Shown here: positions 9,214-25,753 of the stretch, in pieces | Numbering within the stretch: the stretch's first letter is position 1 | Layout: every line of letters starts with the position of its first letter | DNA from: Gemmobacter lutimaris | GTDB taxonomy: Bacteria > Pseudomonadota > Alphaproteobacteria > Rhodobacterales > Rhodobacteraceae | Length of the DNA stretch: 64,000 nt | NCBI RefSeq assembly: GCF_003570715.1 | Contig: NZ_QXXQ01000004.1 | Span: 1-64,000 of the forward strand | Direction: 5' to 3' | Translations under genes and position numbers: made by a program | Notes under the pieces: model-generated | The model's input: only the letters and a program-made list of their open reading frames with translations | Database searches by the model: none | What the model was told of the DNA's origin: nothing

Positions 9214-9254
9214 TCCAGCGTCGGGCATTCCTCGACTGACTTTCATTGACGGGA

Positions 9255-9277
9255 CGGGGCGGTCTTTGGCCGCCCCG
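9255..9277 (+). terminator. Intercistronic hairpin between binding-protein and permease genes
   Basis: CGGGGCGG (9255-9262) pairs with CCGCCCCG (9270-9277) around a seven-base loop. No T-run follows, so it is more likely an mRNA-stabilising or attenuating hairpin that keeps the binding protein in excess over the membrane components than a full terminator. Confidence 0.5.
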
Positions 9278-9306
9278 CGATCCCTGCCAGCCAGAGAGCC
9301 TCCTGC

Positions 9307-10179: not shown

Positions 10180-10183
10180 CGCC

Positions 10184-11140: not shown

Positions 11141-11913
11141 GCCTTCTCGACATCAAGGGCCTTGGCATTACCTTCGGCGGCCTGCGCGCGGTGAACGAGG
11201 TCAGCTTTTCGGTCAGTCCCGGTGAAATCGTCTCGGTCATCGGGCCGAACGGGGCGGGGAAGACCACGCTGTTCAACATGATTTCGGGCATCTATCTGCC
11301 CGGCGCGGGGCAGGTGGTGCTGAACGGCGAGGATGTGACGGGCATGCGCCCCGACCTTCTGGCCCGGCGCGGCATGAGCCGGACCTTCCAGAACCTGCAA
11401 ATCTTTCAAAGCATGACGGTGCTGGAAAATGCGATTTCCGGCTATCATCTGCAGGAACGCGGGCCGGTGCTGGCCGATCTTCTGGGCCTGCCTTCGTCGC
11501 GGCGGCGCTCGAAGGCGGCCGAGGAAGGCGCGCGCGCTTTGCTGGCGCGGGTGGGGCTGGAACGCGCCGCCGAACGCGAGGCGGGGAACCTGTCTTACGG
11601 CGCGCTGAAACGGCTGGAGATTGCGCGCGCGCTGGCGCTGAACCCCAAGGTTCTGTTGCTGGACGAACCCGCCGCCGGCTGCAACGCCGTGGAAACCGAG
11701 GAAATCGACCACCTGATCGCCGAGGTCGCCAAATCCGGCGTGGCGATCCTGCTGGTGGAGCATGACATGAAGATGGTCATGCGGATTTCCAGTCACATCG
11801 TGGTGCTGGACCATGGCGAGAAGATCGCCGAGGGCGACCCGGCCACGGTCAGCCGCGACCCGGCGGTGATCGCGGCCTATCTGGGAACGGAGGCCGAGAA
11901 TGCTGACGGTTGA
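11137..11913 (+). CDS. Branched-chain-type ABC transporter ATPase (LivG family)
   Basis: The 258-residue ATPase has Walker A GPNGAGKTTLFNMISG near residue 35, an LSYGALKRLEIARAL signature region near 150 (the family signature is LSYG rather than LSGG) and Walker B VLLLDEPAAG near 172, with a His switch in LLVEHDMKMV. It overlaps livM by four bases and the next ATPase by 14. In LivG proteins the extended C-terminus with IAEGDPATV is typical. Confidence 0.93.
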   Translation: MSLLDIKGLGITFGGLRAVNEVSFSVSPGEIVSVIGPNGAGKTTLFNMISGIYLPGAGQVVLNGEDVTGMRPDLLARRGMSRTFQNLQIFQSMTVLENAISGYHLQERGPVLADLLGLPSSRRRSKAAEEGARALLARVGLERAAEREAGNLSYGALKRLEIARALALNPKVLLLDEPAAGCNAVETEEIDHLIAEVAKSGVAILLVEHDMKMVMRISSHIVVLDHGEKIAEGDPATVSRDPAVIAAYLGTEAENADG

Positions 11914-12601
11914 GGGGCTGCGCTCGCGCTATGGGCGCATCGAGGTGCTGCATGGCATCGACCTGCATGTGGACAGCGGCGAGATCGTCACCGTGGTCGG
12001 CGCCAATGGCGCGGGCAAGACGACGCTTCTGCGCTGTCTGTCCGGCGTGCAGCCGGTCACGGGCGGCAGCATCACCTTCCGGGGTGAAGCACTGACCCCG
12101 GTGCCCGCCTACAAGCGGCTGAAACGCGGTCTCGCGCAATCGCCCGAGGGGCGGCAGATCTTCACCAACCTGACGGTCGAGGAAAACCTGCGGCTTGGCG
12201 CCTTCCTGTTCTCGGATGACCGGGTGGAAAAGGACATGGAAGATGCCTTCCAGATGTTCCCGATCCTGAAGGAAAAGCGCAATCTGGCGGCGGGTGGCCT
12301 GTCGGGTGGCCAGCAGCAGATGCTTGCCATGGCGCGGGCGCTGATGGGGCGGCCGTCCTGCCTGCTTCTGGACGAGCCGTCGATGGGTCTGGCGCCCATT
12401 GTCGTGCAGCAGATCTTCGACGTGGTGAAGGGTCTGAAGGCGCTGAACGTCACCGTCCTTCTGGTCGAACAGAATGCCTTCGGTGCCTTGAAGATTGCGG
12501 ATCGGGGCTATGTGATGGAAACAGGGCATATCACCATGAGCGGGACGGCGGCCGAGCTGATCGCCGATCCGCGCATCCGCGAAGCCTATCTGGGGATCTG
12601 A
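11900..12601 (+). CDS. Branched-chain-type ABC transporter ATPase (LivF family)
   Basis: The 233-residue ATPase carries Walker A GANGAGKTTLLRCLSG near residue 34, signature GGLSGGQQQMLAMARALM near 133 and Walker B CLLLDEPSMGLAP near 155, then LLVEQNAFGALKIAD. It completes a five-gene importer (binding protein, two permeases, two ATPases). Its start lies inside the 3' end of the LivG gene. The FadB-like enzyme gene starts two bases after its stop. Confidence 0.93.
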   Translation: MLTVEGLRSRYGRIEVLHGIDLHVDSGEIVTVVGANGAGKTTLLRCLSGVQPVTGGSITFRGEALTPVPAYKRLKRGLAQSPEGRQIFTNLTVEENLRLGAFLFSDDRVEKDMEDAFQMFPILKEKRNLAAGGLSGGQQQMLAMARALMGRPSCLLLDEPSMGLAPIVVQQIFDVVKGLKALNVTVLLVEQNAFGALKIADRGYVMETGHITMSGTAAELIADPRIREAYLGI

Positions 12602-12602
12602 G

Positions 12603-14546
12603 ATGAGCGTTGTAAGCATCGAACGCGAGGGCGAAGTCGCCGTCGTCACCGTGGACAACCCGCCGGTCAACGCGCTGGGACAGGCGCTGCGGCAAGGGCT
12701 GTGGGATGCGGTGGCCACGCTGGACGCTGATCCGGATGTGCGGGCGGTGGTGCTGATCTGCGCGGGCCGCACCTTCATCGCCGGGGCCGATGTGCGCGAA
12801 TTCGGCAAGCCGCCGGTCGAGCCGCATCTGCCCGATGTGGTCAACCGGATCGAGGGCGCGGTGAAACCCTGGGTCGCCGCCATTCATGGCAGCGCGCTGG
12901 GCGGCGGGTTCGAGGTGGCTTTGGGCTGTCGCTTCCGGGTGGCGCTGGATGGTGCCTCGGTCGGTCTGCCCGAAGTGGGTCTGGGCATCGTGCCCGGCGC
13001 CTCGGGCACGGTGCGCACGCCCCGCGTGGCGGGGGCTGCGGCCGCGGTGGATCTGGTGACGACCGGCAAGCCGGTGAAGGCTGCGAAGGCGCAGGCCATG
13101 GGTCTGGTCGATGCGGTTATGACCGGCGATCTGCGGGCCGGCGCGGTGGCCTTCGCCCGTGCCGCGCTGGGGGCACCGTTGCCGCTGCCCGCGTCAGAAC
13201 GCCCTGTCGCCGATCCGGGGGCCGACTTCTGGGCCGAACAGCAGACGGCAGTGGCCAAGCGGGCGAAGGGCGAGGCCGCCCCGTTGCGCGCGCTCGCTTG
13301 TGTGCAAAAGGCGGTTCAGGCGCCCTTTGCCGAAGCGCTGGCCTTTGAACGCGCGACCTTTCTTGACCTGCGCGGCTCCGATCAGGCTGCCGCGCTGCGC
13401 CATGTGTTCTTCGCTGAACGTGCCGCCCCGCGCCCGGCGCATCTGGGGGATGCCAAACTCTTGGCCCTGCGCACTGCCGGGGTGATCGGCGGCGGCACCA
13501 TGGGCGCGGGTATCGCCGCAGCACTGCGCGATGCGGGTCTGCCGGTCGTATTGATCGAACGCGATGCCGAGGCGCTGGCACGGGGGCTCGCCAACCTGCA
13601 AGCCATCTTCGACGGCGGGGTGAAGCGCGGCAAGCTGACCCCCGAACAGGCGGCGGCGCGTATGGCGGGCGTCAGCGGCTCCACCGATTACGCGGCTCTG
13701 GCCGACACCGATCTGGTGATCGAGGCGGTATTCGAGGAAATCGGGGTGAAACGCGCCGTCTTTGCCGAACTCGCCCGCCATTGCCGGGCAGATGCGGTGC
13801 TGGCCACCAATACCTCTTACCTCGATCCGCGCGCCATTGCCGAGGGGCTTGCGAACCCCGGTCGCTTCATCGGGCTGCATTTCTTCAGCCCGGCCAATGT
13901 GATGAAGTTGCTGGAAATCGTGCCGACACCCGAGACCGCGCCGGAAACGCTGGCCACCGGCTTCGCGCTGGCGCGCGCGCTGGGCAAGATCCCGGTGCAG
14001 GCCGGGATTTGCGAGGGCTTCATCGGCAACCGCATCCTGAAACGCTATCGTGCTGCCGCCGAAGCGCTGGTGCGGCAAGGCGTGGCGATTGCCGAGGTTG
14101 ACGCCGCCATGCGCGGCTTCGGCTTTGCCATGGGGCCGTTCGAGGCGCAGGATCTGGGCGGGCTAGACATTGCCTTCCTGCAACGCGAGGGCGCGCGGGC
14201 GGCAGGGCAGGAGGTGCCGGAAACGCTGGGCGACCTGCTGGTGCGGGCTGGTCGCAAGGGCCAGAAAACCGGCGGCGGCTGGTATGACTATGCGCCGGGT
14301 GACCGCAAGCCGCAGGCATCGGCCAGAGTGGCCGAGGTGCTGGCCGCCGTCATCACCGCCGGACCGGCGCTGGACCGTGCGGCCATTGCCGAACGGCTTG
14401 TCGGCGAAATGGCCGCTGAGGGGGAGGCGATCCTTGCGGAAGGCATCGCGCTCAGCCCGTCCGACATCGACCTTGTGGAAATCCATGGCTACGGCTTTCC
14501 GCGCTGGCGTGGCGGGCCGATGCATTACACCGCCCGCAAGGGGTGA
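12603..14546 (+). CDS. FadB-like bifunctional enoyl-CoA hydratase/isomerase and 3-hydroxyacyl-CoA dehydrogenase
   Basis: The 647-residue protein has an N-terminal crotonase domain (residues 1-190; VVLICAGRTFIAGADVREF and IHGSALGGGFEVALGCRF) fused to an NAD-binding 3-hydroxyacyl-CoA dehydrogenase (about 295-580; GVIGGGTMGAGIAAALRDAG, then FIGLHFFSPANVMKLLEIVP with the catalytic His and GFIGNRIL). It would process the beta-oxidation-like lower phenylacetate intermediates (3-hydroxyadipyl-CoA), the role filled by PaaF/PaaH elsewhere. It is shorter than E. coli FadB, as in the FadJ-like short forms. It is directly downstream of the transporter and ends five bases from the convergent kinase gene. 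Confidence 0.9.
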   Translation: MSVVSIEREGEVAVVTVDNPPVNALGQALRQGLWDAVATLDADPDVRAVVLICAGRTFIAGADVREFGKPPVEPHLPDVVNRIEGAVKPWVAAIHGSALGGGFEVALGCRFRVALDGASVGLPEVGLGIVPGASGTVRTPRVAGAAAAVDLVTTGKPVKAAKAQAMGLVDAVMTGDLRAGAVAFARAALGAPLPLPASERPVADPGADFWAEQQTAVAKRAKGEAAPLRALACVQKAVQAPFAEALAFERATFLDLRGSDQAAALRHVFFAERAAPRPAHLGDAKLLALRTAGVIGGGTMGAGIAAALRDAGLPVVLIERDAEALARGLANLQAIFDGGVKRGKLTPEQAAARMAGVSGSTDYAALADTDLVIEAVFEEIGVKRAVFAELARHCRADAVLATNTSYLDPRAIAEGLANPGRFIGLHFFSPANVMKLLEIVPTPETAPETLATGFALARALGKIPVQAGICEGFIGNRILKRYRAAAEALVRQGVAIAEVDAAMRGFGFAMGPFEAQDLGGLDIAFLQREGARAAGQEVPETLGDLLVRAGRKGQKTGGGWYDYAPGDRKPQASARVAEVLAAVITAGPALDRAAIAERLVGEMAAEGEAILAEGIALSPSDIDLVEIHGYGFPRWRGGPMHYTARKG

Positions 14547-14551
14547 ACCGT

Positions 14552-17419
14552 TCAGGCGCGGGGCACTGCATCGCCGTGCAGTGCCTCGTGCAGACGCAGG
14601 GCAAGATCGCGGCGCCGATAGGGCTTTGACAACAGACGCATCCCCGCGGCGAAATTACCCCGCCGCAGGATCGCGGTTTCCGAATAGCCCGAGGTGAACA
14701 GCACCCGCAGCGACGGAAATTCTGCCAGCGCATGTTCTGCAAGCATTAGCCCATTCATCTCGCCTGGCATGACCACATCTGTAAACAGCAGCCGCACATC
14801 CCTCGCCTCGCGGATCGTCCCCAGCGCCGCAGCCCCGTCCGCGACGGCTGTAACGCGGTAGCCAAGGCTTTCGACCAGCCGCGCCACATGCGGGCGCAGG
14901 GCCGGGTCGTCCTCGGCCACCACCACATGCTCTCCCGCACCCGTGGGCAAGGGACCATCTTCGGTGATCACAGCCAGTGCCGCCCCGCTGCCCTGTCGGC
15001 TGCGGGGCAGGTAAAGCCGGACCGTGGTTCCCTGTCCCGGTTCGCTGTAAAGCGTGACATGCCCCCCCGACTGGCTGACGAAGCCATGCACCATCGACAG
15101 GCCGAGGCCCGAGCCGCGCCCGACCGGCTTGGTGGTGAAGAACGGGTCGAAGGCGCGAGCGGTCACCTCGGCCGCCATGCCGGTGCCGCTATCGGTGATG
15201 GACAGTCGCAGAAACTCGCCCGGCCGGGCATCGGGGTTGGCGGCGGCATAGCTGCCGTCCAGAATGCAATTTTCGGCCTCGATCAGCAGATCGCCCCCTT
15301 CGGGCATCGCGTCCCCTGCATTGACCACAAGGTTCAGAAGCGCCGTCTGCAACTGCGCAGGATCGGCCTCGACGGGCCAAAGGTCATCAGGCGCGTGAAT
15401 GGCAAGGCGGATATAGGCGGGCAGGGTGCGGCCCAGCATGCCGCGCAATTCGGTCAGGACGGCGGCACTGTCCAGCGCACGCGGCGCCAGTGGCTGACGG
15501 CGGGCAAAGGACAAAAGGCTGCGCACCAGTTCAGCCCCGCGTTCGGCGGCCTGCACCACCTGCGCCGCGGGTCGCCGCGCGGTCTCTCCGGCAGAGCCAT
15601 CTGCCAGCAGTTCGGCATTGCCCAGGATCACGGACAGCAGGTTGTTGAAATCATGCGCGACACCGCCCGTCAGTTTGCCCAGAGCCTCCAGCCGTTGCGA
15701 CTGTTGCAGCTTGGCGGCCAGTTCCACCTCGTCGGTGATGTCTTCTATCGCGCCGACGATGCGGAATGCCTCGCCTTCGTCGTCGCGCAGGGCCAGCGCC
15801 CGGTCGCGCACATGGGCATAGCTGCCATCGGCGCGGCGCAGGCGATATTCCGCGCGCCAGTCCTCGCGCCGCCCTGCGATGAAGGTGCGGAACCGCCGCT
15901 GCACCTGTCCTGCATCCTCGGGATGAAGCGATTGCGTCCAGATGCCGGGCGAGGGTTGCTCGCCAGCCCATGCCGCGCCGAAGATCGCCACTGCGCCCTC
16001 GCTGTAAAGCACATTGCCCGCGCGCAGGTCGATTTCATAGACCACATCCGAGGCAAGCCGCAGCACCGCGCGCAGACGTTCCTCTTCTTCCCGCAGGCGG
16101 GTCACATCGACGATGGAGCCGATGAGCCTGTGCAACCGTCCGTCCGGGTGGCGCTGTGCCAGCGCGCGGTCGATCACATGGGCGACCGAACCGTCCCCGC
16201 GGATCACCCGATAGGTATATTCCCAACGGTCCTCCCCGCGCGTGATGGCAGTATCGCGCAGATGCAGGATGCGGGGCAGGTCGTCGGGATGGATCGCCGC
16301 GCGCCAACTGCCCGGACCGGAGGCCGGTGCGGTGGGGTCCAGCCCGAAGGTGCGGCTGTAGCTTTCACTGCGCCATGTGCGACCTGTTTCCGGTTCCCAT
16401 GAATAGATCACATCCTGCGAGGCCTCGGCTGCGAGGCGAAAGCGTTCCTGTCCCTCGCGCAAAGCGGTCATATCGACCATAGATCCCACACTCCGCAAGG
16501 CGCGCCCGCTGGCGTCACGCTGGAACCGCGCGCGGTCCAGTACCCAGACATAACTGCCATCGGCGCGGGCGAAGCGGTATTCCTCGGTCCACTGGTCATC
16601 GCTTCCTGCACGCGCCGCGTTAAAGCGTTCGCGCAGGCGTGGCGCATCCTCGGGGTGCACCCGCGACATCCACCAGTCTGTCGTTTCGACGCCGGGCACA
16701 TCCGCATGGCCGTATTGCCGGAACAGCGCGTCGCTCCACCAGATATTGTCTGCGACGAGATCGTGGATGAACAACACGTCGGTCGAGGCCGAGGTAGCAA
16801 GCTGAAACCGGGCTTCGACCTCGTGCACCGCGCTCACGTCCATCATCGTGCCGATCATGCGCCGCGCCTGCCCGCCTTCGTCGCGCAGCAAGAAGCCCCG
16901 GTCGATCACATGCGCCACCGTGCCATCGGCGCGCAGGAAACGGTAGGCCTCTTGCCATGTGTCCAGATCGCCCGGCACGGGCGACAGCACGGCGGCCGCG
17001 ATGCGGGGCCTGTCCTCGGGGTGGATGCGGTCAAGCCAGCGCAGGACGGTACCGGGAAATTCGGTCGTATCATAGCCCATCGTGTTCTCGGCGCTGGCGA
17101 ACCAGTCCAGCCGACCGTTCGACATGTCCCAGTCGAACATCACATGTCCCGACGCGCGCAGGGCAATATCCGCACGGTTTTCATGGCCGCATTGCGCCAC
17201 GAGGATGGTGCGCTCCTGCCCGTCAAGGTGCAGCGGCAGGCTCCAGCAGGTTACGGCAAGACGGCTGCTGACTGCGGCGATGATTTCGTCTGCGCTGGCA
17301 TTGGTCAGTGCGGGAAACATCAGCCTTGCGGGCGTATTGGCGCGACCGGGCCCCCCCGGTCGATCCGGCAGAAGCCAGGCGGGTGCCCCGATCTTGGTCA
17401 GATACTCTTCTGCGTCCAT
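14552..17419 (-). CDS. Hybrid sensor histidine kinase with four PAS/PAC domains and a C-terminal receiver
   Basis: This 955-residue soluble kinase has no membrane segment. Four consecutive PAS_3-type units occupy about residues 85-575, each ending in the same pattern: HPEDxPR, then YRxxRADGSxxHVxDRA, then RxIGxxxDVT. The dimerisation and phosphoacceptor site is in GGVAHDFNNLLSVILGN (His near 588). ATP-binding motifs are NAGDAMPEGGDL near 703 and the G-box GRGSGLGLSMVHGF near 773. The receiver (about 835-945) has its phosphoacceptor Asp in LLFTDVVMPG near 881, and the SKPYRRRDL lysine. The arrangement fits CckA-like or generic hybrid kinases. ATG at 17419 was preferred to an upstream TTG. The signal and the partner regulator are unknown. 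Confidence 0.9.
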   Translation of the reverse strand: MDAEEYLTKIGAPAWLLPDRPGGPGRANTPARLMFPALTNASADEIIAAVSSRLAVTCWSLPLHLDGQERTILVAQCGHENRADIALRASGHVMFDWDMSNGRLDWFASAENTMGYDTTEFPGTVLRWLDRIHPEDRPRIAAAVLSPVPGDLDTWQEAYRFLRADGTVAHVIDRGFLLRDEGGQARRMIGTMMDVSAVHEVEARFQLATSASTDVLFIHDLVADNIWWSDALFRQYGHADVPGVETTDWWMSRVHPEDAPRLRERFNAARAGSDDQWTEEYRFARADGSYVWVLDRARFQRDASGRALRSVGSMVDMTALREGQERFRLAAEASQDVIYSWEPETGRTWRSESYSRTFGLDPTAPASGPGSWRAAIHPDDLPRILHLRDTAITRGEDRWEYTYRVIRGDGSVAHVIDRALAQRHPDGRLHRLIGSIVDVTRLREEEERLRAVLRLASDVVYEIDLRAGNVLYSEGAVAIFGAAWAGEQPSPGIWTQSLHPEDAGQVQRRFRTFIAGRREDWRAEYRLRRADGSYAHVRDRALALRDDEGEAFRIVGAIEDITDEVELAAKLQQSQRLEALGKLTGGVAHDFNNLLSVILGNAELLADGSAGETARRPAAQVVQAAERGAELVRSLLSFARRQPLAPRALDSAAVLTELRGMLGRTLPAYIRLAIHAPDDLWPVEADPAQLQTALLNLVVNAGDAMPEGGDLLIEAENCILDGSYAAANPDARPGEFLRLSITDSGTGMAAEVTARAFDPFFTTKPVGRGSGLGLSMVHGFVSQSGGHVTLYSEPGQGTTVRLYLPRSRQGSGAALAVITEDGPLPTGAGEHVVVAEDDPALRPHVARLVESLGYRVTAVADGAAALGTIREARDVRLLFTDVVMPGEMNGLMLAEHALAEFPSLRVLFTSGYSETAILRRGNFAAGMRLLSKPYRRRDLALRLHEALHGDAVPRA

Positions 17420-17510
17420 GGAAATCGTCCACTGCAACCTGTGCGAGTATCTTCTGTTCTTCAGGGAAAGGAAACCGAAGCCTTGTCAATCGCGTGCCGC
17501 CGTGGCGCGT

Positions 17511-18428
17511 TCACCACGCCAGAAGTTCCTCCGCCGCTCGGCCCGAGACCTCTTGCAGCAGCCACTCGCGGAAGGCGACGAGCGGGGGATAGTTCTCTCC
17601 GATCCCCGGCCAGACGAGGTAGTAGCTGCCGACACTGGGTACCGGCCCGCCCCAGGCTTCAACCAGGCGACCATCGGCCAGTTCGGCCTTGGCCAGAAAC
17701 TCGGGCAGCAGGGCCACGCCCATGCCGTAGATGGCCGACTGGATCATCGGGGCGAACTGGTCGAACAGCATCCCCAGCGGGATAGAGGCAGATACGCCGT
17801 GGAACGAGAACCAACTGGCCCAGGCATTCGGCCGGGTTTCCAGTTGCAAGAGCGGCAGGCCGATCAGGTCGCGCGGGCTGTCGATGGGGTGGCTTGCCAG
17901 AAAGCCCGGCGCGGCGCAGGCGATCATCCTTTCGTCGAAGAGTTTCGCAAAACCCGCCTCGGGCCATGTGCGATCCCCGAAATGGATGGCGGCGTCAAAG
18001 CCCTCTTCCGCGAAATCGAAGGGCCGCAGCCGGGTGCCAAGGTTGATCGTCACCCCCGGATGGGCGGCCAGAAAGCGCGGCAGCCGCGGCGCCAGCCAGC
18101 GCGTGCCGAACGTGGGCAGGATCGACAGCGCCAGCGTGCCGCCTCCGGTGGTCGATCGCACCCGCATCGAGGCGCGGCTGATCAGGTCCATCGCCTTTGC
18201 CACGTCGCGCGCATAGGCCAGCGCATTTTCGGTGGGCACCAGTCGCCGCCCCTCGCGCCGGAACAGTTGCACGCCAAGCTGTGCCTCAAGGTTCTGCACC
18301 AGCCGGCTGACCGCGCCCTGTGTCAGTGCAAGGTCATTGGCGGCGGCAAGGGTCGATCCGGTGCGGATGACAGATTCGAAGGCCATCAGAAGCGAGATCG
18401 AGGGTAAAAGGCGGCGAGGAGTGGCCAT
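17511..18428 (-). CDS. LysR-family regulator, probable activator of glutaryl-CoA dehydrogenase (GcdR-like)
   Basis: The 305-residue LysR protein (start MATPRR at 18428) has an N-terminal winged HTH (SISLLMAFESVIRTGSTLAAA through LTQGAVSRLVQNLEAQLGVQLF) and a GcvA-like effector domain beginning GTLALSILPTFGTRWLAPRL. It diverges from gcdH by 100 bp with an ATAACG-N9-CGTTAT inverted repeat between them. Divergent LysR-gcdH pairs are the rule in proteobacteria, and glutarate or glutaryl-CoA is the likely effector. That effector is inferred. Confidence 0.87.
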   Translation of the reverse strand: MATPRRLLPSISLLMAFESVIRTGSTLAAANDLALTQGAVSRLVQNLEAQLGVQLFRREGRRLVPTENALAYARDVAKAMDLISRASMRVRSTTGGGTLALSILPTFGTRWLAPRLPRFLAAHPGVTINLGTRLRPFDFAEEGFDAAIHFGDRTWPEAGFAKLFDERMIACAAPGFLASHPIDSPRDLIGLPLLQLETRPNAWASWFSFHGVSASIPLGMLFDQFAPMIQSAIYGMGVALLPEFLAKAELADGRLVEAWGGPVPSVGSYYLVWPGIGENYPPLVAFREWLLQEVSGRAAEELLAW

Positions 18429-18448
18429 GTATGCTTTCCATGCATAGG

Positions 18449-18469
18449 ATAACGTCAATCTATCGTTAT
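18449..18469. promoter_or_regulatory. LysR-type inverted repeat in the gcdH divergent promoter
   Basis: ATAACG (18449-18454) and CGTTAT (18464-18469) form a 6-9-6 inverted repeat, 20 bp upstream of the regulator start and about 60 bp from the gcdH start. The geometry fits a LysR recognition site that could serve autoregulation and activation. Confidence 0.55.
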
Positions 18470-18528: not shown

Positions 18529-19737
18529 ATGGCCCTGAAACCGAAAGACGCCCCCGACCTCGGCCGCTTCGACTGGGAAGATGCTTTCCGTCTGGAAGAC
18601 CAGCTGACCGAAGACGAGCGCATGCTGCGCGATGCTGCCCGCGCCTATGCGCAGGACAAGCTGCAATCCCGTGTGATCAAGGCCTTCGCCGATGAAGAGA
18701 CCGATCCGGCCATCTTCCGCGAGATGGGCGAAATGGGTCTTCTGGGCGTGACCGTGCCGGAAGAATACGGCGGACTTGGCGCCTCTTACGTCTCTTACGG
18801 GCTGGTGGCGCGTGAAGTGGAGCGCGTCGATTCGGGCTACCGTTCGATGATGTCGGTGCAGTCGTCGCTGGTGATGTATCCGATCTACGCTTACGGCTCG
18901 GAAGAGCAGCGCATGAAATACCTGCCGAAGCTCGCCTCGGGCGAATATATCGGCTGCTTCGGTCTGACCGAACCCGATGCCGGTTCCGATCCGGCCGGCA
19001 TGAAGACCGTCGCCCGCAAGACCGCCAATGGCTATGTCCTGAACGGCGCGAAGATGTGGATCTCCAACGCGCCCATCGCCGATGTCTTTGTCGTCTGGGC
19101 GAAATCCGAGGCGCATGGCGGCAAGATCCGGGGTTTCGTGCTTGAGAAAGGCATGAAAGGTCTCTCGGCGCCGAAGATTGGTGGAAAGCTCTCCCTCCGC
19201 GCTTCGGTGACCGGCGAGATCGTGATGAAGGATGTCGAAGTCGGCGAAGATGCGCTGCTGCCGGGCGTCGAGGGGCTGAAAGGGCCGTTCGGCTGTCTGA
19301 ACCGCGCCCGCTATGGCATCTCGTGGGGCGTCTTGGGCGCGGCCGAGTTCTGCCTGTCGGCGGCCCGCCAGTATGGCCTTGACCGCAAGCAGTTCAACAA
19401 GCCCATCGCCGGCACGCAGCTTTACCAGCTGAAACTGGCGAACATGCTGACCGAGATCAGCCTTGGCCTGCAAGCCTCGCTGCGTGTCGGCCGTCTGCTG
19501 GACGAGGCCAATGCCGCGCCCGAGATGATTTCCATCGTCAAGCGCAACAACTGCGGCAAGGCGCTGGACATCGCCCGCTGGGCCCGCGACATGCACGGTG
19601 GCAACGGCATCCAGCAGGAATTCCAGGTCATCCGCCATATGGTGAACCTGGAAACGGTGAACACCTACGAAGGCACCCATGACGTGCATGCCCTGATCCT
19701 GGGTCGCGCTATCACCGGCCTGCAAGCGTTCTTCTGA
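18529..19737 (+). CDS. gcdH: Glutaryl-CoA dehydrogenase
   Basis: The 402-residue acyl-CoA dehydrogenase converts glutaryl-CoA to crotonyl-CoA and CO2 with electrons to ETF. Diagnostic features are the N-terminal [36 protein letters not shown] near residue 145, the substrate-carboxylate Arg region in [20 protein letters not shown] near 100 and the catalytic Glu in [20 protein letters not shown] near 380. It heads a run of co-directional genes for lysine catabolism, whose end product is glutaryl-CoA. Confidence 0.95.
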
Positions 19738-19743
19738 GACGAC

Positions 19744-19780
19744 GTCGGGGCGCGCGCCGATCCGCGGCGCGCGCCCCGAC
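19744..19780. terminator. Perfect 16-bp GC-rich hairpin after gcdH
   Basis: The 16 bases at 19744-19759 are the exact reverse complement of 19765-19780, with a five-base loop. It lies 7 bp past the gcdH stop and 25 bp before the next start. No T-run follows, so it may act as an intrinsic terminator of weak type, an RNase barrier, or a bidirectional structure that uncouples gcdH from the downstream genes. Confidence 0.6.
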
Positions 19781-19804
19781 CAATGATCAACAACAGGGGC
19801 CGGC

Positions 19805-21988
19805 ATGGATCGCGCCGATATCGTTCACGACAATTTCCTGCGCCGCATCGCGTCGCGGGACTTTCCGCATGGCCGCGCTCCTTCGGGGGCGCTTTCGGCG
19901 TTTCAGGCGGTGGAGATTTACCGCGCCGCCTGTCTCAGCCGTGCGCTGGACCGGCAAAGCCGGGTGATGCAGCGGGCCGGGCAGGGGTTCTATACCATCG
20001 GATCATCGGGGCATGAGGGGCTGGCGGCGGTGGCTGCCGCGCTGCGCCCGACCGACATGGCCTTCCTGCATTACCGCGATGCCGCTTTCCAGATCGGTCG
20101 CAGCGCGCAGGTGCCGGGGCAAAGCATTGCATGGGACATGCTGTTGTCCTTCGCGGCCTCCAGCGAAGACCCGATTTCCGGCGGGCGGCACAAGGTGCTG
20201 GGGTCTAAGGCGCTGAGCATTCCGCCGCAGACATCGACCATCGCCTCGCATCTGCCCAAGGCCGTGGGCGCGGCCTATGCAATCGGTGCGGCACGGCGGC
20301 ACCGGCCCGAGCACGCCGAACTGCCCGAAGATGCCATCGTCTATTGCAGCTTCGGCGATGCCTCGGCCAACCATTCCACCGCGCAGGGCGCTTTCAACAC
20401 CGCGCAATGGACCTCGTATCAGTCGATCCCGCTGCCACTGCTGTTTGCCTGCGAGGACAACGGTATCGGCATTTCCACCAAGACGCCGAAAGGCTGGATC
20501 GGGGCGAGCTTCCAGAACCGGCCCGGCCTGAAGTATTTCGCCTGTGACGGGCTCGATATCTTTGACACTTTCGCCACGGCGCAGGAGGCGGCGCATTATG
20601 TGCGGACCCGGCGCAAGCCCGCCTTCCTGCATATCCGCACCATCCGTCTTTACGGCCATGCCGGGGCCGACATGCCCACGACCTACATGCCGCGCGAGGA
20701 GGTGGAGGCCGAAGAGGCGCAGGACCCGCTGCTGCATATGGTGCGCGGGCTGGACCAGATGGGCGCGATGACGGCCGAGGCTGCCTTGCAGGTCTATAAC
20801 GACACCAACGCCCGAGTGGCCCGCATCGCCGCCGAGGCAGTGACCCGCCCGCGCCTGCGCGATGCGGCGGGCGTCATGGCCTCGCTGATCCCGCCGAAGC
20901 GCGATTGCGCGCCGACCAACGGCCCCGCGTCCGAGGCGCGCGCGGCGGCCTTCGGTAGCGACATGAAGCAGATGGCCGAGCCGCAGATCATGTCGCGACT
21001 CATCAACTGGGCGCTGACCGACCTGATGCTGGCGCATCGGGAAATCGTGATGATGGGCGAGGATGTCGGCCGTAAGGGTGGCGTCTATGGCGTGACGCAG
21101 AAGCTGCAACAGCGTTTCGGCCCGGACCGGATGATCGACACGCTGCTGGATGAACAAAGCATTCTGGGCCTTGCCATCGGCATGGCGCAGAACGGCTTCA
21201 TTCCCATGCCGGAAATCCAGTTCCTCGCCTATCTGCACAATGCCGAGGATCAGTTGCGCGGCGAGGCGGCGACGCTGCCCTTCTTCTCGAACGGCCAATA
21301 TACCAACCCGATGGTGCTGCGCATCGCGGGGCTGGGCTATCAGAAGGGCTTTGGCGGGCATTTCCACAACGACAACTCCTTCGCCGTGCTGCGTGACATT
21401 CCGGGGCTGATCCTTGCCTGTCCGTCGAACGGCGCCGATGCCGCGCGGATGCTGCGCGAATGCGTGCGGCTGGCACGCGAGGAACAGCGGCTGGTGGTGT
21501 TTCTGGAACCCATCGCGCTCTATCCGATGCGCGATCTGCATGGCGACAAGGATGGCGGCTGGATGTGCCACTATCCCGACCCGTCCGAGATCATCCCCTT
21601 CGGGCAGGTGGGCACGCATGGCGCGGGCGAGGATCTGGCCATCGTCACCTTCGGGAACGGGGTTTACCTTTCCCGTCAGGCCGAACCCGTGCTGGCGGCG
21701 GCCGGGATCAAGACCCGGATCGTGGACACGCGCTGGCTGTCGCCGCTGCCGAAAGAGGCGCTGACCGAGGCCGTGAAGGGCGCGAAACGCATCCTGATCG
21801 TCGATGAGACCCGTCACACCGGCGGTTTTGCCGAAGCCCTGATGGCGCATTTCCACGAGGCTTGCCCCGGCACGCCGCTTTCGCGTCTGACCGCCGAGGA
21901 CAGTTTCATCGCTACCGGCCCGGCCTATGCGGCCACCATGCCCTCCACCGCGCAGGTCGTGGCGGCGGCGCAGGAGATGATGAAATGA
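19805..21988 (+). CDS. Fused E1 alpha-beta subunit of a TPP-dependent 2-oxoacid dehydrogenase
   Basis: The 727-residue protein joins an E1-alpha-like half (about 1-340) to an E1-beta transketolase half (about 395-727). The TPP/Mg motif is visible as YCSFGDASANHSTAQGAFN near residue 180 and CEDNGIGIST near 215. The beta half has VMMGEDVGRKGGVYGVTQKL near 415, GRKGGV and LDEQSILGLAIGMAQNG near 450, and the C-terminal TRHTGGFAEAL. Single-chain fusions of this type are usually annotated as branched-chain 2-oxoacid dehydrogenase E1. Location between gcdH and the aminoadipate genes suggests 2-oxoadipate as substrate, yielding glutaryl-CoA. No E2 or E3 gene is adjacent. Function is inference; the family call is firm. 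Confidence 0.85.
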   Translation: MDRADIVHDNFLRRIASRDFPHGRAPSGALSAFQAVEIYRAACLSRALDRQSRVMQRAGQGFYTIGSSGHEGLAAVAAALRPTDMAFLHYRDAAFQIGRSAQVPGQSIAWDMLLSFAASSEDPISGGRHKVLGSKALSIPPQTSTIASHLPKAVGAAYAIGAARRHRPEHAELPEDAIVYCSFGDASANHSTAQGAFNTAQWTSYQSIPLPLLFACEDNGIGISTKTPKGWIGASFQNRPGLKYFACDGLDIFDTFATAQEAAHYVRTRRKPAFLHIRTIRLYGHAGADMPTTYMPREEVEAEEAQDPLLHMVRGLDQMGAMTAEAALQVYNDTNARVARIAAEAVTRPRLRDAAGVMASLIPPKRDCAPTNGPASEARAAAFGSDMKQMAEPQIMSRLINWALTDLMLAHREIVMMGEDVGRKGGVYGVTQKLQQRFGPDRMIDTLLDEQSILGLAIGMAQNGFIPMPEIQFLAYLHNAEDQLRGEAATLPFFSNGQYTNPMVLRIAGLGYQKGFGGHFHNDNSFAVLRDIPGLILACPSNGADAARMLRECVRLAREEQRLVVFLEPIALYPMRDLHGDKDGGWMCHYPDPSEIIPFGQVGTHGAGEDLAIVTFGNGVYLSRQAEPVLAAAGIKTRIVDTRWLSPLPKEALTEAVKGAKRILIVDETRHTGGFAEALMAHFHEACPGTPLSRLTAEDSFIATGPAYAATMPSTAQVVAAAQEMMK

Positions 21989-23016
21989 AAACCGCGGTCG
22001 TGATCTGCCCCGGCAGGGGCACGTATACCAAGACTGAACTGGGCGTGCTGGGTCGGCATTTCCACGACAAGGCGCTGCTGGCGAATTTCGACGCCCGCCG
22101 CGCTGCGCTGGGGCAGGAAACCTTGTCGGCGCTGGATGGCGCTGCCAGCTATTCGGTGGCGAAGCACACGCGGGGCGACAATGCCAGCGCGCTGATCTAT
22201 GCCGCGACGCTGGCCGATTTTCGCGCGATTGAAGGCGTAGAGGTGGTCGCCGTCACCGGCAACTCGATGGGCTGGTATTCGGCGCTGGCCTGCGGTGGCG
22301 CGCTGACGACAGAAGGCGGGTTCGAGGTGGTCAACACCATGGGCACGCTGATGCAGGAACGGCTGATCGGTGGCCAGATCATCTATCCCTTCATGGGCGA
22401 GGACTGGCTGCCCGACCCGACCCGCAAAGCCGAGATCATGGCCATCGTCGCAGGTATCGGCGCCCGCCCGGATCATGTTCTTGGCCTGTCGATCGACCTT
22501 GGCGGCATGCTGGTGCTGGCGGGGAACGAGGCCGGGCTGAAGGCGTTCGAGGGCGCCGTGCCGCCGGTGCAGGGCCGCTTTCCGATGCGGCTCGCCAATC
22601 ACGCGGGCTTCCATACCGCCATGCAGGCCCCGGTGGCCGAGGCGGGGCGCGCGCGTCTGGCGCCGGGCCTGTTCGGGCAACCGACGATCCCGATGATCGA
22701 CGGGCGCGGCCATATCTGGTGGCCCGGTGCCTGCGATCTGCATGCGCTCTGGGATTACACGCTGGGGCATCAGGTGGTGGAGCCCTACGACTTCACCCGT
22801 GCCATTACCCATGCGGCGCGCGAATTCGCGCCCGACCTCTTCATCGTCACCGGCCCCGGCACCACATTGGGCGGGGCGGTGGCGCAATCGCTCATCCTCG
22901 CCGACTGGCGCGGGATGCGCAGCAAATCCGATTTCCAATCGCGGCAATCCGCCGATCCCCTTCTGGTTTCCATGGGGATGGAGGATCAACGCCGTCAGGT
23001 CACCAAGGGAGACTGA
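21985..23016 (+). CDS. FabD-like acyltransferase with altered acyl-binding site
   Basis: The 343-residue protein has the alpha/beta acyltransferase fold of malonyl-CoA:ACP transacylases: N-terminal VVICPGRGTYTKTELG (PGQGSQ in FabD), nucleophile elbow VTGNSMGWYSALACGG near residue 90 and the catalytic His in NHAGFHTAMQAPV near 206. Aligning without gaps from the nucleophile Ser to LMQE, the malonate-binding Arg of E. coli FabD (Arg117) is a Met here, and the later Gln (NPVQW) is replaced by Asp in VEPYDF. It therefore probably does not use malonyl-CoA. The start overlaps the E1 stop (ATGA), implying coupled translation and a shared reaction. A general fatty-acid synthesis role is unlikely. Confidence 0.8.
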   Translation: MKTAVVICPGRGTYTKTELGVLGRHFHDKALLANFDARRAALGQETLSALDGAASYSVAKHTRGDNASALIYAATLADFRAIEGVEVVAVTGNSMGWYSALACGGALTTEGGFEVVNTMGTLMQERLIGGQIIYPFMGEDWLPDPTRKAEIMAIVAGIGARPDHVLGLSIDLGGMLVLAGNEAGLKAFEGAVPPVQGRFPMRLANHAGFHTAMQAPVAEAGRARLAPGLFGQPTIPMIDGRGHIWWPGACDLHALWDYTLGHQVVEPYDFTRAITHAAREFAPDLFIVTGPGTTLGGAVAQSLILADWRGMRSKSDFQSRQSADPLLVSMGMEDQRRQVTKGD

Positions 23017-23017
23017 T

Positions 23018-24517
23018 ATGACCCATGCCGAAATCCTGAAGGCCAATGGCCTGAGCCAAGCCGAACTGACCGGCGGCACGCTGGCCGTGCGTTCGCCCAT
23101 CGACGGCGAGGTGGTGGCCCATGTCCACGAAACCGACGCGGGTGACATGCCCGCAATCATTGCCAAATCGCAGGAAGCCTTCCGTGCCTGGCGCACCGTT
23201 CCGGCCCCGCGCCGCGGCGAACTCGTCCGCCTCCTGGGCGAGGAACTGCGCGCCAGCAAAGAGGCGCTGGGCGCGCTGGTGACGCTGGAGGCGGGCAAGA
23301 TCACCTCCGAGGGTCTGGGCGAAGTGCAGGAGATGATCGACATTTGCGATTTCGCCGTCGGCCTGTCGCGGCAGATCTATGGCCTGACCATCGCCTCGGA
23401 ACGCCCCTCGCACCGGATGATGGAAACCTGGCACCCGATGGGGCCTTGCGGCATCATCTCGGCCTTCAACTTCCCCGTGGCCGTGTGGTCGTGGAACGCG
23501 GCGCTGGCGCTGGTCTGCGGCGATCCCGTGATCTGGAAACCGTCCGAGAAAACCCCGCTGACCGCCATGGCCAGCATGAAGATCATGGAACGCGCGCTGG
23601 CGCGGTTTGGCGATGCACCCGAGGGACTGGTGCAACTGGTGATCGGCGGCCCGGCGGTGGGCGAGGCGCTTGTTGCGTCGAAAGACGTGCCGATCCTGTC
23701 GGCCACCGGCTCGACCCGCATGGGCAGCATCGTCGGCCCGAAAGTTGCCGCCCGCTGGGGGCGCCCAATCCTCGAACTTGGCGGCAACAATGCGATGATC
23801 GTGGCGCCTTCAGCGGATCTCGATATGGCGGTGCGCGCCATTGCCTTTTCGGCAGTCGGAACTGCGGGCCAGCGCTGCACGACGCTGCGCCGCCTGATCG
23901 CGCATAACTCGGTCCGTGCCGAACTGGTGGAGCGCCTGACCAAGGCCTATGCCAGCCTGCCCATCGGCGACCCGCGCCGCGCGACCACACTGATCGGCCC
24001 GCTGGTCGATCACGCCAGCCGCGACCGCATGCTGGCGCAGATCGAGAAGGCCCGCGCCGAGGGTGGCACCGTCCATGGCGGCCAGACCGTGACCGACGGC
24101 GTGCCGCAGGGCGGCGCCTATATCAGCCCTGCGCTGATCGAGATGCCGCAGCAGACCGACACCGTGCGCGAGGAAACCTTTGCCCCGATCCTCTATGTCA
24201 TGGGCTATGACACGCTGGACGAGGCGCTGGCGATCCAGAACGACGTGCCGCAGGGCCTGTCCTCCTGCATCTTCACGCTGAACATGCGCGAGGCGGAAAC
24301 CTTCCTGTCGGCCGCCGGCTCGGATTGCGGCATTGCCAATGTCAATATCGGCCCCTCGGGCGCAGAAATCGGCGGCGCCTTCGGCGGCGAAAAGGAAACC
24401 GGCGGCGGACGCGAAAGTGGCTCGGATGCCTGGAAGGGCTATATGCGGCGCCAGACCAATACCATCAACTACGGCGCCACCCTGCCGCTGGCGCAGGGCG
24501 TGAAGTTCGACTTCTGA
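23018..24517 (+). CDS. amaB: Alpha-aminoadipate semialdehyde dehydrogenase (ALDH7-type)
   Basis: The 499-residue aldehyde dehydrogenase belongs to the ALDH7/antiquitin group: TWHPMGPCGIISAFNFPVAVW split near residue 145, WKPSEKTPLTAMA near 175, ELGGNNAMIV near 255 with the general-base Glu, and the catalytic Cys in AGQRCTTLRRLIAHNS near 289. The C-terminal GPSGAEIGGAFGGEKETGGGRESGSD is characteristic of aminoadipate-semialdehyde dehydrogenases. It oxidises aminoadipate semialdehyde (in equilibrium with piperideine-6-carboxylate) to 2-aminoadipate in lysine catabolism. AAGGGAG precedes the ATG, which is one base after the upstream stop. Confidence 0.9.
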   Translation: MTHAEILKANGLSQAELTGGTLAVRSPIDGEVVAHVHETDAGDMPAIIAKSQEAFRAWRTVPAPRRGELVRLLGEELRASKEALGALVTLEAGKITSEGLGEVQEMIDICDFAVGLSRQIYGLTIASERPSHRMMETWHPMGPCGIISAFNFPVAVWSWNAALALVCGDPVIWKPSEKTPLTAMASMKIMERALARFGDAPEGLVQLVIGGPAVGEALVASKDVPILSATGSTRMGSIVGPKVAARWGRPILELGGNNAMIVAPSADLDMAVRAIAFSAVGTAGQRCTTLRRLIAHNSVRAELVERLTKAYASLPIGDPRRATTLIGPLVDHASRDRMLAQIEKARAEGGTVHGGQTVTDGVPQGGAYISPALIEMPQQTDTVREETFAPILYVMGYDTLDEALAIQNDVPQGLSSCIFTLNMREAETFLSAAGSDCGIANVNIGPSGAEIGGAFGGEKETGGGRESGSDAWKGYMRRQTNTINYGATLPLAQGVKFDF

Positions 24518-24554: not shown

Positions 24555-24673
24555 GCATTCTGCCGAAGAAACGCTTCACTTTGGGCGCTATGCCGGGCGC
24601 ATTCGGCACTCCCCTCGGTCATTCTGCCAAATATGCGCCTCCGCAAAGGCGGGGCAGGAACGAGGGAAATACA

Positions 24674-25753
24674 ATGTCTTTCAACAAGATCGCTGTTCTG
24701 GGGCTTGGCAAGGTCGGCCATCTGGCGGCCGAGCTGCTGGTGGAAAGCGGCTTCACCGTCACTGGCATCGACGCCCGCGAAACCCGCGCGCCCTTCGCCA
24801 CGAAAACCGTGGACCTGTCGGACACCGCTGCGCTGAAAGCCGCGCTGGAAGGGCAGGAGGCGGTGCTGTCCTGCCTGCCTTACCACCTGAACATCGGCGT
24901 CTCGACCGTCGCGCATGGGCTGGGTCTGCATTACTTCGACCTGACCGAGGATGTGCCGACGACGAAACACATCCGCGAACTCGCCAAGACCTCCAAGGGT
25001 CTGATGGCGCCGCAATGTGGCCTTGCGCCGGGCTTCGTCGGGATCGTGGCCGCCGATCTGGCGAACCAGTTCGACAGCGTGCGTTCCATCAAGCTGCGTG
25101 TCGGCGCGCTGCCGCAGAACCCGACGGGCCTGTTGGGCTATGCCTTCAACTGGTCGCCCGAAGGCGTGGTGAATGAATACCTCAATGATTGCGAGGTGAT
25201 CGAGGAAGGCGTGCTGAAAACCGTCTCGGCGATGGAATGGACGGAAGCCATCTATATCGACGGGATGCAGCTTGAAGCCTTCACCACCTCGGGCGGCCTT
25301 GGCACCATGTGCGAGACCTATCTCGGCAAGATCGAGAACCTTGATTACAAGACCATGCGCTATCCCGGCCATGTGCAGTTGATGAACTTTTTCTTCCATG
25401 AACTGCTGATGCGCGAGAACCGGGCCGAGGCGGGCCGCATCCTGACCAATGCGAAACCGCCGGTGGACGAGGATGTGGTCTATGTCCACGTCGCGGCCGA
25501 GGGTCGGGTGGATGGCCAGATGCGGCGCAAGGAATTCGTGCGCAGCTACTATCCGGTCGAGATCGGCGGCAAGTCCCGCACCGCGATCGCCTGGACCACC
25601 TCGGCCTCGGTGGTGGCGGTGATCGAGATGGTGCGCGGCGGCGCCCTGCCGCAACAAGGCTTCCTGAAGCAGGAGGACATTCCGCTGAAACCCTATCTGG
25701 ACACCCGGACCGGCCATTACTACCAGATCGGCCACCGCGCCCGTCACGCCTGA
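24674..25753 (+). CDS. Saccharopine dehydrogenase, glutamate-forming (Lys9-like)
   Basis: The 359-residue protein begins with a Rossmann motif (KIAVLGLGKVGHLAAELLVESG) and continues with LSCLPYHLNIGVSTVAHGLGLHYFDLTED and the APQCGLAPGFVGIVAADL block typical of Lys9-type saccharopine reductases. It would oxidise saccharopine to glutamate and aminoadipate semialdehyde, feeding the ALDH7 gene upstream. A Lys1-type lysine-ketoglutarate reductase is not in the window. GAGGGAAA precedes the ATG. The 156-bp gap with a hairpin before it suggests its own expression level. Confidence 0.88.
   Translation: MSFNKIAVLGLGKVGHLAAELLVESGFTVTGIDARETRAPFATKTVDLSDTAALKAALEGQEAVLSCLPYHLNIGVSTVAHGLGLHYFDLTEDVPTTKHIRELAKTSKGLMAPQCGLAPGFVGIVAADLANQFDSVRSIKLRVGALPQNPTGLLGYAFNWSPEGVVNEYLNDCEVIEEGVLKTVSAMEWTEAIYIDGMQLEAFTTSGGLGTMCETYLGKIENLDYKTMRYPGHVQLMNFFFHELLMRENRAEAGRILTNAKPPVDEDVVYVHVAAEGRVDGQMRRKEFVRSYYPVEIGGKSRTAIAWTTSASVVAVIEMVRGGALPQQGFLKQEDIPLKPYLDTRTGHYYQIGHRARHA

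What the first reader, a model, noticed from the sequence alone, without database searches (positions are those of the whole stretch)
19805..23016. Fused E1 dehydrogenase and FabD-like acyltransferase embedded in a lysine degradation cluster
gcdH, a saccharopine dehydrogenase and aminoadipate-semialdehyde dehydrogenase define the lysine to glutaryl-CoA route. The one missing step, 2-oxoadipate to glutaryl-CoA, is exactly where these two translationally coupled genes sit. Classical 2-oxoadipate dehydrogenase needs E1, E2 and E3, but no lipoyl E2 or E3 is here. The pair may be a dedicated E1 borrowing a general E2, or a system in which the acyltransferase passes the acyl group to CoA or a carrier. 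Seen: gene order, overlap and family motifs. Inferred: the reaction.
Basis: partly seen in the sequence, partly recalled or inferred. Interest (0 to 1): 0.75.

Follow-up and report, generated by a model that had tools for sequence, protein, structure and literature searches.

The report
Lysine-breakdown enzyme pair lacking usual partner
Two overlapping bacterial genes, one related to the first subunit of classic 2-oxoacid dehydrogenases and one shaped like a fatty-acid-synthesis acyltransferase, most likely carry out a poorly understood step of lysine breakdown without the partner subunit such enzymes normally have of their own.

Summary
A fused alpha-beta E1 (19805-21988) overlaps by 4 bases a FabD-fold protein, here "AT" (21985-23016), between gcdH and an L-piperidine-6-carboxylate dehydrogenase (PipDH); a lysine-6-dehydrogenase-like gene follows. 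E1 and AT were adjacent in 45 of 45 fetched order relatives and 10 of 10 loci outside the order. At least one of gcdH, PipDH, LysDH or a pipecolate-oxidase-like gene lies within 7.5 kb in 23 of 45 and 54 of 79 named loci. In 3 of 3 genomes with both PipDH and HglS, the known 2-oxoadipate enzyme, HglS sits beside PipDH and an aminotransferase; none of 7 HglS genomes has this E1. This points to 2-oxoadipate to glutaryl-CoA. No dedicated E2 was found: 31 of 46 AT-bearing genomes have exactly two E2 genes. I infer that E1 borrows a lipoyl domain, as human DHTKD1 does, and that AT (Ser94, His210 kept; malonyl-binding Arg replaced by Met) moves or removes glutaryl on thioesters. Against an obligate two-part enzyme: 21 of 67 E1 genomes lack AT. 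Chemistry is untested. My searches turned up no paper describing the pair. New variant of a known kind.

The parts
17511..18458 (-). LysR-family regulator, divergent from the cluster (GcvA-like)
   Evidence: Pfam LysR_substrate and HTH_1; nearest NCBIfam GcvA, below cut-off. A LysR lies near the pair in 25 of 45 order loci and 54 of 79 named loci.
18529..19737 (+). gcdH-type acyl-CoA dehydrogenase (glutaryl-CoA to crotonyl-CoA)
   Evidence: Acyl-CoA_dh domains. NCBIfam glutaryl-CoA dehydrogenase Acd 210.7 bits, below its cut-off of 470, and not the top hit, so the exact substrate is inferred. Orthologue (60 % identity or more) within 7.5 kb in 14 of 45 order loci and 30 of 79 named loci.
19805..21988 (+). 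fused alpha-beta 2-oxoacid dehydrogenase E1 (ThDP)
   Evidence: PF00676, PF02779, PF02780. Asp185, Asn219, His285, Glu450, His519 and His521 are the same in 77 of 77 relatives; the places of His285, Glu450 and His521 are read from alignments to known E1 chains.
21985..21988 (+). ATGA overlap of the E1 stop and the AT start
   Evidence: read
21985..23016 (+). FabD-fold acyltransferase (AT): GNSMG Ser94, His210, Gln263; FabD malonyl-binding Arg replaced by Met119; PGRG for PGQG
   Evidence: alignments and model
23018..24517 (+). L-piperidine-6-carboxylate / aminoadipate-semialdehyde dehydrogenase (PipDH, amaB-like)
   Evidence: NF050084 810.3 bits, above its cut-off of 730
24668..25753 (+). L-lysine 6-dehydrogenase-like protein (saccharopine dehydrogenase fold)
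   Evidence: Sacchrp_dh_NADP and Sacchrp_dh_C; best PDB match 3abi. Start chosen by eye; the ORF list gives TTG at 24581.

Best explanation
The pair converts 2-oxoadipate to glutaryl-CoA in a lysine/pipecolate route: LysDH or pipecolate oxidase, then P6C dehydrogenase, aminotransferase, E1 with AT, then gcdH. E1 decarboxylates 2-oxoadipate on ThDP. It then reductively glutarylates a lipoyl domain borrowed from a housekeeping complex, most likely the 2-oxoglutarate dehydrogenase E2. AT, a Ser/His acyltransferase, handles the glutaryl thioester: it passes glutaryl from dihydrolipoyl to CoA, or clears stuck glutaryl-lipoyl from the shared E2. Shown by sequence: gene order, families, active-site residues, no E2 gene that goes with the pair, and HglS in the same gene context in other genomes. 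Inferred: substrate (strong), borrowed lipoyl (moderate), AT chemistry (weak to moderate).
For: E1 beside AT in 45 of 45 order loci, 75 of 79 named loci (in the other four the contig begins inside or just after E1) and 10 of 10 loci outside the order, which were found through AT. Context of gcdH, PipDH, LysDH, class I/II aminotransferase and L-pipecolate-oxidase-like genes. AT and PipDH co-occur in 28 genomes where about 11 are expected (46 and 47 of 196; Fisher p 3e-10, not corrected for descent). HglS (2-oxoadipate to 2-hydroxyglutarate; PMC7286885, passages) is in 7 of 196 genomes, none with E1. In 3 of 3 PipDH+HglS genomes it lies co-directional with PipDH and an aminotransferase, with no gcdH hit at the thresholds printed. 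E2 genes: exactly two in 31 of 46 AT+ genomes and in 74 of 129 E1-negative ones, so no extra E2 comes with the pair. His residues needed for reductive acylation in known E1s (role recalled) are invariant. AT keeps Ser94, His210 and Gln263 and loses the malonyl Arg. Precedents: PMC5986005 (passages) states that human DHTKD1 appears to recruit E2 and E3 of OGDH, and that E. coli E1o glutarylates its lipoyl domain from 2-oxoadipate at 22 per s; glutaryl-lipoyl adducts are removed by a serine hydrolase, ABHD11, in human cells (PMC12643935, passages); A. tumefaciens resting cells make the biotin precursor from 2-oxoadipate (PMC7645780, passages and one section).
Against: 21 of 67 E1 genomes have no AT orthologue and no remnant by tblastn in the fetched loci, yet 15 of these 21 keep gcdH beside E1; AT is therefore not always needed. 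22 of 45 order loci and 25 of 79 named loci have none of gcdH, PipDH, LysDH or AmaA-like nearby. 18 of 46 AT+ genomes lack PipDH at the threshold used. HglS/E1 exclusion is only p = 0.05. A. tumefaciens could reach glutaryl-CoA by way of glutarate and CaiB (PMC7645780), so that precedent does not prove a dehydrogenase. The glutaryl preference of AT is not shown. The E1 model was poor (pLDDT 73.6), so the substrate pocket was not examined.
Confidence: 0.6

Rival explanations
1. E1 works as a plain DHTKD1 analogue with the whole 2-oxoglutarate (or pyruvate) dehydrogenase E2-E3 core making glutaryl-CoA. AT is an accessory on a side branch, for example a thioesterase, or a transfer of glutaryl from CoA to a carrier such as ACP.
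For: E1 persists without AT in 21 of 67 genomes, often still beside gcdH (15 of 21). In one of these (L192) genes of a PDH-type lipoyl E1 beta and E2 lie 5.4-8.2 kb from E1. Human DHTKD1 is described as sharing OGDH's E2 and E3 (PMC5986005 passages). Alphaproteobacteria use glutaryl-CoA for biotin (PMC7645780 passages).
Against: E1 and AT adjoin in the loci examined and overlap in the window. E1 residues Trp110 and Arg340 tend to change where AT is absent: same direction in 4.5 and 4.9 of 7 independent pairs, median p 0.125 and 0.06, the two best of 8 positions tested, which only hints at contact. No ACP turned up among the flanking proteins scanned with Pfam, though ACP was not searched for. 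BioZ prefers glutaryl-CoA, and glutaryl-ACP has not been observed in nature according to PMC7645780.
Confidence: 0.22
2. The pair acts without any lipoyl group: E1 oxidises the ThDP adduct with another acceptor, and AT picks up the acyl group on Ser94 and hands it to CoA.
For: No lipoyl gene recognised near AT-bearing E1s (motif scans) and no extra E2 in the genomes. An open frame with iron-sulfur domains (Fer2, Fer4) lies 2-5 kb downstream in 8 of 45 order loci, though not in the window's cluster.
Against: E1 keeps the His residues used for reductive acylation. The iron-sulfur frame is confined to those 8 loci; the flavin gene that recurs (9 of 45) looks like pipecolate oxidase.
Confidence: 0.08
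3. The E1 acts on another 2-oxoacid (branched-chain or aromatic); proximity to lysine genes reflects a broader amino-acid island.
For: Sequence similarity is to branched-chain and pyruvate E1 chains. About half of the order loci show no lysine neighbour.
Against: HglS beside PipDH and the aminotransferase in other genomes. gcdH beside E1 also in AT-less and non-order loci (15 of 21; 5 of 10). Among the clusters of flanking genes found in 5 or more order loci, the 8 whose representatives I scanned gave no other catabolic pathway; two clusters (numbers 2 and 8) were not scanned. The window genome has another fused E1 with its own E2 (L218).
Confidence: 0.1

Closest known systems
Human 2-oxoadipate dehydrogenase DHTKD1 (E1a), which shares E2 and E3 with OGDH
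   Same: Proposed reaction (2-oxoadipate to glutaryl-CoA); an E1 with no E2 of its own.
   Different: Here a PDH/BCKDH-type fused alpha-beta E1, with no OGDH-type E1 model among 11 NCBIfam hits, coupled to a FabD-fold protein that DHTKD1 lacks (recalled).
HglS / DUF1338 hydroxyglutarate synthase (PF07063)
   Same: Same substrate step; in 3 genomes of the order it sits beside PipDH and an aminotransferase, where E1-AT sits in others.
   Different: Unrelated family; product 2-hydroxyglutarate, not glutaryl-CoA; no gcdH hit in those loci at the thresholds printed.
FabD (malonyl-CoA:ACP transacylase) and MdcH
   Same: Fold, GxSxG Ser, catalytic His and Gln.
   Different: 15-22 % identity in the 50 best structural matches listed; below NCBIfam cut-offs; malonyl-binding Arg lost (Met119); PGRG for PGQG.
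ABHD11, human glutaryl-lipoyl thioesterase
   Same: Possible function: a serine enzyme that frees glutaryl from lipoyl (PMC12643935, passages).
   Different: Alpha/beta hydrolase, a different fold; functional analogy only, untested.
Fused E1 plus E2 at G000:C74 in the same genome (L218)
   Same: Fused alpha-beta E1, 29 % identical in its aligned part.
   Different: Followed by its own lipoyl E2, nearest to SucB models but below their cut-offs.

Membership tests
PDH/BCKDH-type 2-oxoacid dehydrogenase E1 | E1_dh + Transket_pyr + Transketolase_C domains | tested here: met
   all three above curated cut-offs
PDH/BCKDH-type 2-oxoacid dehydrogenase E1 | ThDP-site and catalytic His/Glu residues | tested here: met
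   Asp185, Asn219, His285, Glu450, His521 in 77 of 77; mapped by alignment
2-oxoacid dehydrogenase complex with its own E2 and E3 | lipoyl E2 encoded with the E1 | tested here: not met
   no lipoyl motif in the window or in ORFs near the 45 order pairs; no extra E2 in AT+ genomes. E3 not tested.
2-oxoadipate dehydrogenase | activity on 2-oxoadipate giving glutaryl-CoA | not testable with these tools
   context only
DHTKD1/OGDH-type E1 | similarity to OGDH-type E1 models | tested here: not met
   11 NCBIfam hits, none an OGDH E1
FabD / malonyl-CoA:ACP transacylase | FabD fold | tested here: met
   Foldseek best E 1.8e-17, TM 0.75
FabD / malonyl-CoA:ACP transacylase | catalytic Ser and His | tested here: met
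   Ser94 and His210 invariant in 26 and in 45 aligned sequences
FabD / malonyl-CoA:ACP transacylase | Arg that binds the malonyl carboxylate (Arg117 in E. coli, number and role recalled) | tested here: not met
   Met119 at that place, invariant
FabD / malonyl-CoA:ACP transacylase | NCBIfam fabD score above cut-off | tested here: not met
   35.5 bits against 260.9; no Pfam hit
L-piperidine-6-carboxylate dehydrogenase (neighbour) | NF050084 above cut-off | tested here: met
   810.3 against 730

The most novel reading that the evidence does not exclude
A 2-oxoadipate dehydrogenase in which a FabD-fold serine acyltransferase does the job of the E2 catalytic core: it unloads glutaryl from a lipoyl domain stolen from another complex on to CoA. 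This would be a non-homologous replacement of E2 catalysis in a 2-oxoacid dehydrogenase.
Probability: 0.27. Interest if true: 0.82.

Novelty: new variant of a known kind. Interest (0 to 1): 0.6.

Why it matters
It gives candidate genes for 2-oxoadipate to glutaryl-CoA in Alphaproteobacteria and some other Proteobacteria, a step that feeds lysine carbon to central metabolism and may, in some Alphaproteobacteria, feed biotin synthesis (PMC7645780, passages). If AT unloads glutaryl from lipoyl groups, it would be an E2-like activity on a fatty-acid-synthesis fold. It would also offer a bacterial counterpart to the recently described removal of glutaryl-lipoyl adducts in human cells (PMC12643935, passages). 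Both ideas can be tested with a few purified proteins.

Tried and rejected
True saccharopine route: the 361-aa gene resembles lysine 6-dehydrogenase more than the longer saccharopine reductases, so I read the entry step as LysDH. A hidden lipoyl or carrier gene: motif scans of ORFs near the pair and of the window in six frames found none that fits; the one true lipoyl hit is the PDH-type pair 5.4-8.2 kb from the AT-less E1 of L192. The eight PF00364 places of the window genome are four lipoyl and four biotin domains; glycine-cleavage H protein was not sought. A pseudogene of AT in the 21 E1-only loci: tblastn found nothing convincing (best E 0.59). A separate E1 subfamily without AT: the tree needs 9 label changes, at least 7 on supported branches, so AT-less E1s are scattered. 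The 10 rows from outside the order were all chosen through the AT search, so repeated loss rather than repeated gain is likely but not proven. Coevolving E1 surface: Trp110 and Arg340 are suggestive, not significant; the other 6 of 8 positions tested were weaker. Structure of E1: poor model, not used. One search carried a wrong 'HglS' label because my script took an antisense ORF as the query; redid it with the right protein, and only one search is used.

E2 counts were typed by hand from the table, and the genome lists by hand. One named locus (L150) was dropped from the count of 80: an open frame spanning E1 and AT was labelled E1 by my script. The pdb_via structure library was not available.
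Full report
What is there. The window belongs to a 4.66 Mb genome; the closest named AT relatives listed are mostly Gemmobacter, at 85-86 % identity. The cluster reads LysR (minus), gcdH, E1, AT, PipDH, LysDH-like. E1 and AT overlap by ATGA, and PipDH starts one base after the AT stop. E1 is a single 727-aa chain with the alpha (E1_dh) and beta (Transket_pyr, Transketolase_C) halves of a PDH/BCKDH-type E1. AT has no Pfam match and scores far below the NCBIfam FabD and MdcH cut-offs, but PDB sequence search finds FabD chains (best E 1.4e-8). Its AlphaFold2 model (pLDDT 95.1, 45 sequences) finds FabD structures first.

Active sites. In AT the nucleophile motif GNSMG (Ser94), His210 and Gln263 align with FabD Ser, His and Gln and are invariant. 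The FabD arginine that binds the malonyl carboxylate (role recalled) is Met119, and PGQG has become PGRG. An active acyltransferase that is not malonyl-specific is the natural reading (inference). In E1, Asp185, Asn219, His285, Glu450, His519 and His521 are identical in 77 of 77 relatives. By alignment to known E1 chains, Glu450, His521 and His285 fall where the catalytic Glu and two His of other E1s lie. The role of those residues, including the His in reductive acylation of lipoyl, is recalled.

How widespread. In 196 genomes of the order, AT hits split cleanly: 46 orthologues at E<1e-100, then weak hits from E 1.6e-11 upward, taken to be ordinary FabD and polyketide acyltransferases (178 of 196 have some match at E<=1e-3). 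E1 (profile A2, E<=1e-100) is in 67, including all 46. In 398 genomes drawn from the phylum, AT is in 16. Ten of those lie outside the window's family: four in the same class, six only in the same phylum. In all 10 the E1 is beside AT.

Neighbourhoods. I fetched up to 20 kb around the 45 order pairs other than the window (L065 is shorter and L064 begins near a contig end). E1 and AT are adjacent in 45 of 45. Within 7.5 kb, midpoint to midpoint: LysR 25, gcdH 14, class I/II aminotransferase 14, PipDH 9, pipecolate-oxidase-like 9, LysDH 5; 22 have none of gcdH, PipDH, LysDH or AmaA-like. In 80 named loci (the best 80 of 538, so biased to close relatives; one dropped) the counts of 79 are: E1 75, LysR 54, PipDH 50, gcdH 30, LysDH 25, aminotransferase 23, pipecolate-oxidase-like 8; 25 have none of the four. 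The four without E1 begin inside or just after it. The pipecolate-oxidase-like gene has NF050086 AmaA as best hit, 413.5 bits, below the cut-off of 600. So different ways into the same intermediate (LysDH, pipecolate oxidase, or neither nearby) are found with the same PipDH, aminotransferase, E1-AT and gcdH, in varying subsets. Other genes also recur in parts of the sample, for instance an iron-sulfur open frame 2-5 kb downstream in 8 of 45 and a short-chain dehydrogenase in 6 of 45.

Co-occurrence. PipDH (E<=1e-150) is in 47 of 196 genomes, and 28 of these also have AT (Fisher p 3e-10; descent not corrected). The sharpest evidence is HglS, the enzyme known to turn 2-oxoadipate into 2-hydroxyglutarate (PMC7286885, passages). 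It is in 7 of 196 genomes, 0 of them with E1 (p 0.05). Three genomes have both HglS and PipDH, and in all three HglS lies next to PipDH, in the same direction, with the aminotransferase on the other side and no gcdH hit at the thresholds printed. The same slot is thus filled by E1-AT (often with gcdH) or by HglS (without). This is the strongest argument that the E1 substrate is 2-oxoadipate and the product glutaryl-CoA. Fifteen PipDH genomes have neither.

No E2 of its own. All 196 genomes have PF00198 E2 genes. Exactly two are found in 31 of 46 AT+ genomes, 14 of 21 E1+AT- and 74 of 129 E1-. I take the two to be those of PDH and OGDH; this was not checked genome by genome. The window genome has four lipoyl domains: the E2 at C23, taken as the OGDH one because a 987-aa ORF lies beside it, the PDH-type E2 and its lipoyl neighbour at C53, and a third E2 that follows another fused E1. 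Its other four PF00364 places are biotin domains. Glycine-cleavage H protein was not sought. Borrowing is therefore the simplest reading, as described for human DHTKD1 (PMC5986005, passages). Among AT-less loci, L192 has PDH-type lipoyl genes 5.4-8.2 kb from E1.

What AT may do. 21 of 67 E1 genomes lack AT, with no remnant at the fetched loci; 15 of these 21 still have gcdH beside E1, but only 1 has PipDH, against 28 of 46 with AT (p 1e-5, uncorrected). AT therefore seems to improve or extend the reaction rather than being indispensable. Two chemical roles fit a Ser/His acyltransferase coupled to this E1: moving glutaryl from dihydrolipoyl to CoA, or clearing glutaryl-lipoyl from an E2 that the cell also needs for the TCA cycle. 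The second has a functional precedent in human ABHD11 (PMC12643935, passages). Neither is shown here. E1 positions Trp110 (53 of 56 with AT, 5 of 21 without) and Arg340 (49 of 56, 1 of 21) hint at a contact lost with AT, but they are the best of 8 positions tested and the paired test is not significant.

What is known. In Ruegeria pomeroyi, SPO0234 (lysine dehydrogenase) and SPO0235 (aminoadipate-semialdehyde dehydrogenase) carry consecutive tags and are re-annotated by function, with several genes of the lysine pathways said to be verified by experiment (PMC4334477, passages). A Ruegeria locus here (L115) has LysDH-like (41 % to the window's), PipDH, LysR, aminotransferase, gcdH, E1, AT in a row. 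In Phaeobacter inhibens labelling shows pipecolate and 2-aminoadipate as lysine products beside a cadaverine route; 2-oxoadipate was not detected and, in the passages seen, no gene is named for its conversion (PMC5653290, passages). A. tumefaciens cells make biotin precursor from 2-oxoadipate, though CaiB, which makes glutaryl-CoA from glutarate, is essential there (PMC7645780, passages and one section). Paper searches listed none that I recognised as describing this pair; for most hits only titles and abstract starts were seen, and subscription journals and preprints are mostly not covered.

Verdict. Substrate step: likely (about 0.8). Borrowed lipoyl domain: about 0.65. AT acting on a glutaryl thioester: about 0.45. 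The pair is a new variant of a known kind.

Noticed in passing
G000:C74, L218:2969-6269: A second fused alpha-beta E1 (29 % identical in its aligned part) directly followed by its own lipoyl E2 (nearest SucB models, below cut-off); substrate unknown.
   Followed up: partly
window 19745-19781: A GC-rich inverted repeat (TCGGGGCGCGCGCCG ... CGGCGCGCGCCCCGA) between gcdH and E1, read by eye; may attenuate transcription between the two.
   Followed up: no
L222-L236 (15 PipDH-positive genomes): PipDH without E1-AT or HglS: how these genomes use 2-oxoadipate is open.
   Followed up: partly
L197:9149-12535: An AT-less E1 lies directly downstream of a kynureninase-family gene; tryptophan breakdown can also give 2-oxoadipate (recalled).
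   Followed up: no
L206:8738-13847: An AT-less E1 is followed by a second, unrelated ThDP enzyme and a family III CoA transferase, the family of the glutarate-activating CaiB; possibly another route to glutaryl-CoA.
   Followed up: no
L044, L046, L048, L052, L056, L057, L058, L062: An open frame of 1070-1091 aa, whose scanned representative has Fer2 and Fer4 iron-sulfur domains, lies 2-5 kb downstream of the pair.
   Followed up: no
window 8074-12601: Branched-chain-type amino acid ABC transporter set (binding protein, permeases, ATPase-like genes; binding protein and one permease confirmed by Pfam) between a PaaN-like gene (6388-8040) and a FadB/FadJ-like gene (12603-14546).
   Followed up: no
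window 14552-17437 (-): Hybrid histidine kinase with four PAS_3 stretches and a receiver, next to the LysR gene of the cluster.
   Followed up: no
window 795-2879: Protein with RTX calcium-binding repeats (PF00353).
   Followed up: no
E1 Trp110 and Arg340 (window E1 numbering): These residues tend to change where AT is missing; possible contact site.
   Followed up: partly
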